From positions 32,274-96,273 of the forward strand of contig JAMCXS010000028.1 in NCBI GenBank assembly GCA_023474345.1: 64,000 nt of DNA, read 5' to 3'. The notes under the pieces are model-generated. The model had not been told where the DNA came from. It saw nothing but the letters and a program-made list of their open reading frames with translations, and did no database searches. The stretch comes from Acidobacteriota bacterium (GTDB lineage: Bacteria; Acidobacteriota; Terriglobia; UBA7540). Below, piece by piece: positions 35,407 to 36,384 of the stretch (within the stretch, counting starts at the first letter, position 1; each line of letters opens with the position of its first letter). Made by a program: the position numbers and the translations under genes.

Positions 35407-36384
35407 ATGGACAAAGCCATCGAATTCCTTGTGCACCACGGCTATGCGGTTCTGGCGGCCTGGGTATTTGCTGAACAATTCGGCTTTCCCATTTCTTCCA
35501 TCCCTTTGCTTTTGGCGGGCGGGGCGCTGGCCGGCGCGGGGAATTTGAGGCTGGCAGAGGTCCTTGTTTTCCCTGTGGCAGGCTCTCTCTTGGCAGATAG
35601 CATCTGGTTTGAAATCGGCCGGCTCAAAGGATCAAGCGTGTTGAATGTGTTGTGCCGCGTTTCGCTGGAGCCGGACTCCTGCGTGCGAAACGCGGAGAAT
35701 CTTTTTGCCCGCAAGGGTCCCAACACCCTTGTGGTGGCCAAATTCGTACCCGGACTTAGCGTGGTCGCGCCGCCCCTGGCCGGGATGTTCGGAATGACCA
35801 TTCCGCGCTTCCTGATGTTAGACGGGGCGGGAGCGCTTGCTTACATCGGCACATTCGTGAGCCTCGGCTACGTTTTCAGTCACCAACTGGGAAGGGTGGC
35901 GGAAATTGCGCTGGGGTTTGGAACGTGGCTGCTGGTGCTTCTGGTGGCAAGCGTGATTCTCTACCTTGGCTGGAAGTTTTTCCAGCGGCAGCGATTTCTG
36001 CGCGACTTGCGAATCAGTCGCATCACCCCGGAAGAGTTAAAGCGGAAGATGGATAGCAATGAGGAGATAGCGATCGTGGACTTACGTCACGCAATCGATT
36101 TCGACTCCGATCCCAATACCATTCCCGGCGCCATCCTTCTCCCTTCTGAAGAATTCGAGCGCCGGCACATGGAAATCCCGCGCGATCGTGAGCTGATTCT
36201 TTTCTGTACTTGACCGAATGAGGCGACCAGCGCCCGTGTGGCGCTGATGCTCAAACGCCGGGGGTTAGATCACGTCCGGCCGCTCGCCGGTGGTTTGGCG
36301 GGTTGGAGAGGAAAAGGCTTTCCCCTTGAGAAGCGGAAGATTTCAGAGCCGCCCGTGGGCGAGCGGCTGATGGAGACTCCTTGA
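35407..36384 (+). CDS. DedA-family membrane protein fused to a rhodanese domain; candidate selenoprotein with in-frame TGA at 36211-36213 (codon 269)
   Basis: DedA: EQFGFPISSIPLLLAGGALAG...AKFVPGLSVVAPPLAGMFGM. Rhodanese: AIVDLRHAIDF...LILFCT-[TGA]-PNEATSARVALMLKRRGLDHVRPLAGGLAGWRGKGFPLEK, same frame, next stop TGA at 36382-36384. Confidence 0.8.
36228..36246 (+). promoter_or_regulatory. candidate bacterial SECIS apical hairpin
   Basis: CAGCGCC-CGTGT-GGCGCTG: perfect 7-bp stem, 5-nt loop with G at second position, loop starts 21 nt after the TGA. Confidence 0.65.

What the first reader, a model, noticed from the sequence alone, without database searches (positions are those of the whole stretch)
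35407..36384. Candidate selenoprotein: DedA-rhodanese fusion with in-frame TGA in the rhodanese active-site loop
The ORF track stops the DedA-rhodanese gene at TGA 36211-36213, right after ...RDRELILFCT. In the same frame the DNA continues as PNEATSARVALMLKRRGLDHVRPLAGGLAGWRGKGFPLEKRKISEPPVGERLMETP up to a TGA at 36382. That is the missing C-terminal half of a rhodanese domain. From memory, related DedA-rhodanese proteins read (F/Y)C(S/T)CPNEAxxARVA here, so the TGA sits exactly at a conserved Cys and would give a C-T-Sec motif. The 171 nt past the TGA look like coding sequence and do not collide with the next gene (pdhC ends at 36434). Standard gene callers would truncate this protein and lose its active site.
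Basis: partly seen in the sequence, partly recalled or inferred. Interest (0 to 1): 0.9.

Follow-up and report, generated by a model that had tools for sequence, protein, structure and literature searches.

The report
Membrane DedA-rhodanese selenoprotein, annotated truncated
A soil-type acidobacterium, like many of its relatives, reads a 'stop' codon inside a membrane-anchored sulfur-handling protein as the rare amino acid selenocysteine, so databases list this protein cut off just before its reactive selenium site.

Summary
TGA 36211-36213 interrupts a VTT/DedA + rhodanese gene, and the frame continues with the missing rhodanese half. In 110 homologous genes from Terriglobia the aligned codon is TGA in 76 and TGC/TGT in 34, never TAA/TAG; a second, named set gives 54 TGA / 26 Cys, reaching Rokubacteria, Methylomirabilota and 'Deltaproteobacteria' MAGs. 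A hairpin starts 14 nt past the TGA (36228-36246; CAGCGCC-CGUGU-GGCGCUG) and fits the published bacterial SECIS model. It is frozen at synonymous sites only in TGA genes: Ala GCC 76/76 and Ala GCG 76/76, against about half in Cys genes; Arg CGT/CGG 73/73 where CGC is otherwise commonest. The same genome (75% complete) holds a Sec-type selD with its own SECIS-like hairpin and a selB cut by a contig end; selA and selC were not found there but are common in relatives. Two corrections: the Sec is two residues after the canonical catalytic Cys (motif C267-T-U269); and CxU rhodanese selenoproteins are already a predicted family (NF041203). What appears undescribed is the DedA-fused membrane form, widespread and routinely annotated as a 268-aa 'VTT domain protein'. 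Function is inferred only.

The parts
35407..36384 (+). DedA(VTT)-rhodanese gene, 325 aa when TGA codon 269 is read as Sec; stop TGA 36382-36384
35497..35871 (+). VTT/DedA membrane domain (residues 31-155); invariant C83 and C92 inside it
   Evidence: Pfam; conservation
36025..36312 (+). Rhodanese domain (residues 207-302), split by the TGA
   Evidence: Pfam; PDB matches
36205..36207 (+). Codon of C267, the canonical rhodanese catalytic Cys position (end of strand 262-266)
   Evidence: alignment to 3tp9; model
36211..36213 (+). In-frame TGA, predicted selenocysteine codon (U269)
36228..36246 (+). Predicted bacterial SECIS hairpin CAGCGCC-CGUGU-GGCGCUG, apical loop 36235-36239, 21 nt after the TGA

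Best explanation
The gene encodes a selenoprotein: UGA 269 is decoded as selenocysteine by SelB/tRNA-Sec, directed by the hairpin at 36228-36246. The product is a polytopic DedA-type membrane protein with a C-terminal rhodanese domain whose active-site loop reads C267-T-U269-P-N-E. Shown here: conserved TGA/Cys alternation, TGA-specific SECIS constraint, purifying selection past the TGA, and Sec machinery in the genome and its relatives. Inferred: that C267 and U269 form a fast thiol/selenol pair (persulfide carrier or selenenylsulfide) used for membrane-tethered sulfane-sulfur transfer or reductive detoxification, possibly with the invariant C83/C92 of the DedA half as partner.
For: Codon at the site: TGA 76, TGC 25, TGT 9, other 0 in 110 Terriglobia homologues; TGA 54, TGC 17, TGT 9 in 80 named genomes of several phyla. 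59 database proteins truncated at the same residue. Hairpin: stem of 4 or more pairs plus loop G in 76/76 TGA genes, 3/34 Cys genes; Ala+7 GCC 76/76 vs 16/34 and Ala+10 GCG 76/76 vs 17/34; mean dominant-codon share elsewhere 0.58; Arg+8 of the CGN type is only CGT/CGG although CGC is 55% of CGN in these genes; outermost pair C-G/G-C swaps and one C-G to U-A change in L166. Fits the published model: loop 3-9 nt, G in the first two loop positions followed by G/U, 16-37 nt spacing, MFE at most -7.5 (PMC13188914; -12.9 kcal/mol). Own genome: selD with VKAAG-U-AAKLSP and its own hairpin, z -4.5; SelB C-terminus 75% identical to full SelB of G042, same maf neighbour, cut by the contig end. 75 of 77 genomes with the TGA form have selA; the two without are this bin (75% complete) and an 84%-complete one.
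Against: selA and selC were not found in this bin. The two closest named relatives (78% identity; G074, G176) carry Cys. Compensatory changes are few because the stem hardly varies. The selA association is not significant once phylogeny is controlled (independent pairs, median p 0.63), as most clades with Cys forms also keep selA. No protein, selenium or ribosome data exist here, and the catalytic role is inference.
Confidence: 0.94

Rival explanations
1. Pseudogene or sequencing error: the TGA is a nonsense mutation or miscalled TGY in a Cys-type DedA-rhodanese gene.
For: Closest named relatives have TGT at this codon; the genome is a metagenome bin.
Against: The same TGA recurs in 76 of 110 and 54 of 80 homologues from independent assemblies and in 59 truncated database proteins up to 84% identical; downstream dN/dS median 0.29; intact SECIS hairpin in the window.
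Confidence: 0.03
2. UGA is a genuine stop: a short 268-aa DedA protein with half a rhodanese domain is the functional product, or UGA acts as a regulated read-through stop without Sec.
For: Gene callers end there; no proteomics available.
Against: The stop is never TAA or TAG in the TGA-form genes sampled (76 and 54, the sets overlapping in part); the 40 residues after the TGA are better conserved (64%) than the 40 before (45%); hairpin constraint has the bacterial SECIS form; TGA forms sit in selA-bearing genomes.
Confidence: 0.02
3. UGA is read as another amino acid (for example Trp or Cys) by a reassigned or suppressor tRNA.
For: Not excluded by sequence alone for a single codon.
Against: Ordinary genes of the genome end in TGA (for example this gene's own stop 36382-36384); homologues replace the codon with Cys only; SECIS and sel genes are present.
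Confidence: 0.01

Closest known systems
Rhodanese-like selenoprotein form 3, NF041203 rhodanese_LYCAU (CxU), listed in PMC13188914 and PMC9312934
   Same: Rhodanese domain with Sec at the same C-x-U position of the active-site loop; NF041203 covers residues 202-310 of this protein (82.4 bits); stand-alone CTU rhodaneses occur in the same class (L145-L150).
   Different: The NCBI model is a 126-aa stand-alone domain with cut-off 115 bits; here the domain is fused behind a DedA membrane domain and scores below the cut-off; none of 151 Terriglobia genomes passes it.
Cys-type DedA-rhodanese fusions (COG0586; for example P. aeruginosa PA1209; database name 'DedA family protein/thiosulfate sulfurtransferase GlpE')
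   Same: Same domain order and, for the close homologues, the same length; Cys at residue 269.
   Different: Cys instead of Sec; published descriptions of DedA-rhodanese fusions (PMC10127716, PMC12893004) do not mention Sec forms in the passages read.
Rhodanese/DsbD fusion-like selenoprotein TsoB (NF045694)
   Same: Known selenoprotein with rhodanese and, by its name, DsbD-like (membrane) parts.
   Different: UxxxxU motif, two Sec, DsbD not DedA (PMC13188914); no NCBIfam match to it here.
E. coli DedA protein YqjA
   Same: DedA core alignable, 24% identity.
   Different: No rhodanese domain; the second Arg of the second re-entrant helix is S118 here, and the acidic residue in the first re-entrant region of YqjA (PGDS) has no counterpart in the alignment.

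Membership tests
Bacterial selenoprotein (UGA-encoded Sec) | In-frame UGA aligned with Cys in homologues, coding sequence conserved beyond it | tested here: met
Bacterial selenoprotein (UGA-encoded Sec) | bSECIS just after UGA: loop 3-9 nt with G in first two positions, 16-37 nt spacing, stable stem | tested here: met
   TGA-specific synonymous constraint
Bacterial selenoprotein (UGA-encoded Sec) | selD and selB in the genome | tested here: met
   selD complete; selB C-terminal fragment at contig end, homologous and syntenic to full selB
Bacterial selenoprotein (UGA-encoded Sec) | selA and selC in the genome | tested here: inconclusive
   Not found in this 75%-complete bin; selA present in 75 of 77 TGA-form genomes; tRNA-Sec 65-75 bits in 9 of 11 genomes tested, all but this bin and G074
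Bacterial selenoprotein (UGA-encoded Sec) | Selenium in the protein | not testable with these tools
   needs mass spectrometry or 75Se
NF041203 rhodanese_LYCAU | Score over curated cut-off 115 bits | tested here: not met
   82.4 bits
NF041203 rhodanese_LYCAU | C-x-U motif in the rhodanese loop | tested here: met
   LFCTU
Rhodanese (PF00581) | Domain over gathering score; catalytic Cys at the strand end | tested here: met
   43.2 bits vs 22.2; C267 after strand 262-266
Rhodanese (PF00581) | Standard six-residue active-site loop | tested here: not met
   loop two residues longer than in 3tp9 and 5ve3
DedA undecaprenyl-phosphate flippase (COG0586/UptA) | VTT/DedA domain | tested here: met
   PF09335 44.4 bits vs 33.9
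DedA undecaprenyl-phosphate flippase (COG0586/UptA) | UptA model cut-off; two basic residues in the second re-entrant helix | tested here: not met
   56 bits vs cut-off 250; K112 invariant but residue 118 is S/G/N in nearly all homologues, Arg in YqjA

The most novel reading that the evidence does not exclude
A new class of membrane selenoenzyme: the DedA half has lost conserved flippase residues but keeps two invariant cysteines (C83, C92), which could relay electrons or sulfane sulfur from the CxU rhodanese loop to a membrane or periplasmic substrate (a polyisoprenoid or electrophile, given YceI/nitroreductase/MarR neighbours in relatives), rather than flip undecaprenyl phosphate.
Probability: 0.25. 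Interest if true: 0.78.

Novelty: new variant of a known kind. Interest (0 to 1): 0.64.

Why it matters
It appears to be a widespread membrane selenoprotein that is absent from a 2026 inventory of 119 prokaryotic selenoprotein families (PMC13188914) and has no NCBIfam model matching above its cut-off. It is common in Acidobacteriota and also found in Rokubacteria, Methylomirabilota and other MAGs, so many database entries lack their active-site half. It links selenium use in soil and subsurface bacteria to membrane sulfur chemistry, and with at least 11 Sec/Cys switches on supported branches it is a good natural system for asking what Sec adds over Cys. The hairpin and the Sec/Cys alternation give directly testable predictions.

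Tried and rejected
Nonsense mutation or read error (rejected: recurrent TGA, conserved hairpin, purifying selection). Absence of Sec machinery (rejected: selD and a selB fragment present; selA/selC unresolved). Treating the raw selA association as proof (Fisher p 1e-20): after phylogenetic pairing it is not significant, so it is used only as a necessary-condition check. Folding the window stretch alone is weak (z -1.2 for 52 nt); the case rests on TGA-specific synonymous constraint. Filing the domain as NF041203: below cut-off. A plasmid search with selB and the paper searches naming DedA or VTT together with selenoprotein or selenocysteine gave nothing relevant. Conserved gene neighbours were found in relatives but not at the window locus.

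Full report
What is there. The gene starts at ATG 35407; codon 269 is TGA (36211-36213) and the frame runs on to TGA 36382-36384, giving 325 aa. The product has a VTT/DedA membrane domain and a complete rhodanese domain that spans the TGA. The window lies in a 1.98-Mb, 33-contig, 75%-complete genome bin; database names of close relatives place it in the Acidobacteriota, class Terriglobia.

Homologues. A protein search found 59 others that stop at the same residue, ending ...[FY]C[TS], with 63-84% identity, and 59 full-length ones reading C-x-C-P-N-E. Where a source gives names, the first are called 'VTT domain-containing protein' or 'DedA', the second 'DedA family protein/thiosulfate sulfurtransferase GlpE' or similar: the TGA forms are routinely truncated.

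DNA of homologues. In 300 Terriglobia genomes the reading frame was searched through stops. For 110 homologous genes the codon at the site is TGA 76, TGC 25, TGT 9 and never TAA, TAG or any other codon. A separate scan of named genomes gave TGA 54, TGC 17, TGT 9 in 80 loci, the TGA ones including Acidobacteria, Candidatus Rokuibacteriota, Methylomirabilota and Deltaproteobacteria MAGs; the Nitrospira loci read Cys. The two sets overlap in part. Past the TGA, dN/dS has median 0.29, and the 40 residues after it are more conserved relative to the window (64%) than the 40 before it (45%).

SECIS. A hairpin CAGCGCC-CGUGU-GGCGCUG lies at 36228-36246, its loop 21 nt after the TGA (-12.9 kcal/mol). 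It meets the published bacterial model (PMC13188914). All 76 TGA genes have a stem of at least 4 pairs and a G in the first two loop positions; 3 of 34 Cys genes do. The strongest argument lies in synonymous sites: Ala+7 is GCC in 76/76 TGA genes but 16/34 Cys genes; Ala+10 is GCG in 76/76 but 17/34. The loop Arg codon, when CGN, is CGT (60) or CGG (13), never CGC, although CGC is 55% of CGN elsewhere in the same genes; this matches the model's G followed by G or U. Outside the hairpin the dominant codon averages 0.58. Covariation is limited, as the stem hardly varies: C-G/G-C swaps at the outer pair, and U-A for C-G in L166. One Cys gene (L020, TGT) keeps the full hairpin, looking like a relic of a recent Sec-to-Cys change. 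Sequences are related, so nominal p-values overstate; the effect sizes do not depend on them.

Machinery. The genome has selD with TGA at the known Sec position (VKAAG-U-AAKLSP) followed by a strong hairpin, z -4.5. A 143-aa SelB C-terminus lies at the end of contig C29; it is 75% identical to a full SelB in G042 and has the same maf neighbour (Maf named from my knowledge of the family). selA and selC were not found in the bin; tRNA-Sec scores 65-75 bits in 9 of 11 genomes tested, all but this bin and its Cys-form genus mate G074. Of 77 genomes with the TGA form, 75 have selA; of 73 with no stop, 21 do (tallied by hand from the listed rows, partial selA hits counted). A phylogeny-controlled pairing does not reach significance.

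Evolution. The tree needs 12 Sec/Cys changes, 11 on supported branches. The window gene is sister to two Cys genes, inside a group of Sec genes.

Position of the Sec. In alignments to solved rhodaneses (3tp9, 5ve3) the catalytic Cys matches C267, and the loop is two residues longer. The model puts C267 right after strand 262-266 and before helix 273-284 (mean pLDDT 82); Foldseek's best hits are rhodanese domains. So Sec 269 is a second reactive residue, C-x-U.

Mechanism, inferred. C267 would carry a persulfide or form a selenenylsulfide with U269; the invariant C83 and C92 of the DedA half (110/110 and 109/110) may be partners. Flippase residues of classical DedA proteins (PMC10127716) are only partly kept (K112 yes, second Arg no), so undecaprenyl-phosphate flipping is doubtful. 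In one related group the gene follows SDR, MarR, YceI and nitroreductase genes on the same strand, hinting at stress or electrophile handling.

Known or new. Rhodanese 'form 3' CxU selenoproteins are listed (PMC13188914; NF041203), and DedA-rhodanese fusions are known (PMC10127716, PMC12893004). No paper found in the held open-access library links DedA or VTT to selenoproteins, and the 119-family inventory has no such entry. Papers outside the library were not searchable.

Noticed in passing
L145-L150 (matches): Stand-alone rhodanese genes of about 125-145 aa with an in-frame TGA in the same C-T-U-P context (YCTUPHE, YCTUPNE) in several Terriglobia genomes; NF041203-like but below its cut-off.
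   Followed up: partly
window 35653-35682 (residues 83-92) and homologues: Motif C[RK]xS[LM]EPDSC in the DedA half: C83 invariant in 110/110 and C92 in 109/110 homologues; possible redox partner of the CxU loop.
   Followed up: partly
L160-L208 (gp2/Acidiferrales-type relatives), about 3 kb upstream: Recurrent same-strand order SDR - MarR - YceI - nitroreductase - DedA/rhodanese; absent at the window locus.
   Followed up: partly
L020 (G176), codon at 2305: Cys (TGT) homologue that keeps the full SECIS hairpin: likely a relic of a recent Sec-to-Cys conversion.
   Followed up: partly
L019:1486-2526: selD of the same genome has an in-frame TGA and a strong following hairpin with a loop that begins GU: a second selenoprotein gene of this organism.
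   Followed up: yes
codon before the TGA in 76 genes (window 36208-36210): Codon before the TGA is ACT in 53 of 76 TGA genes but mostly ACC in Cys genes: possible upstream context preference for Sec decoding.
   Followed up: no
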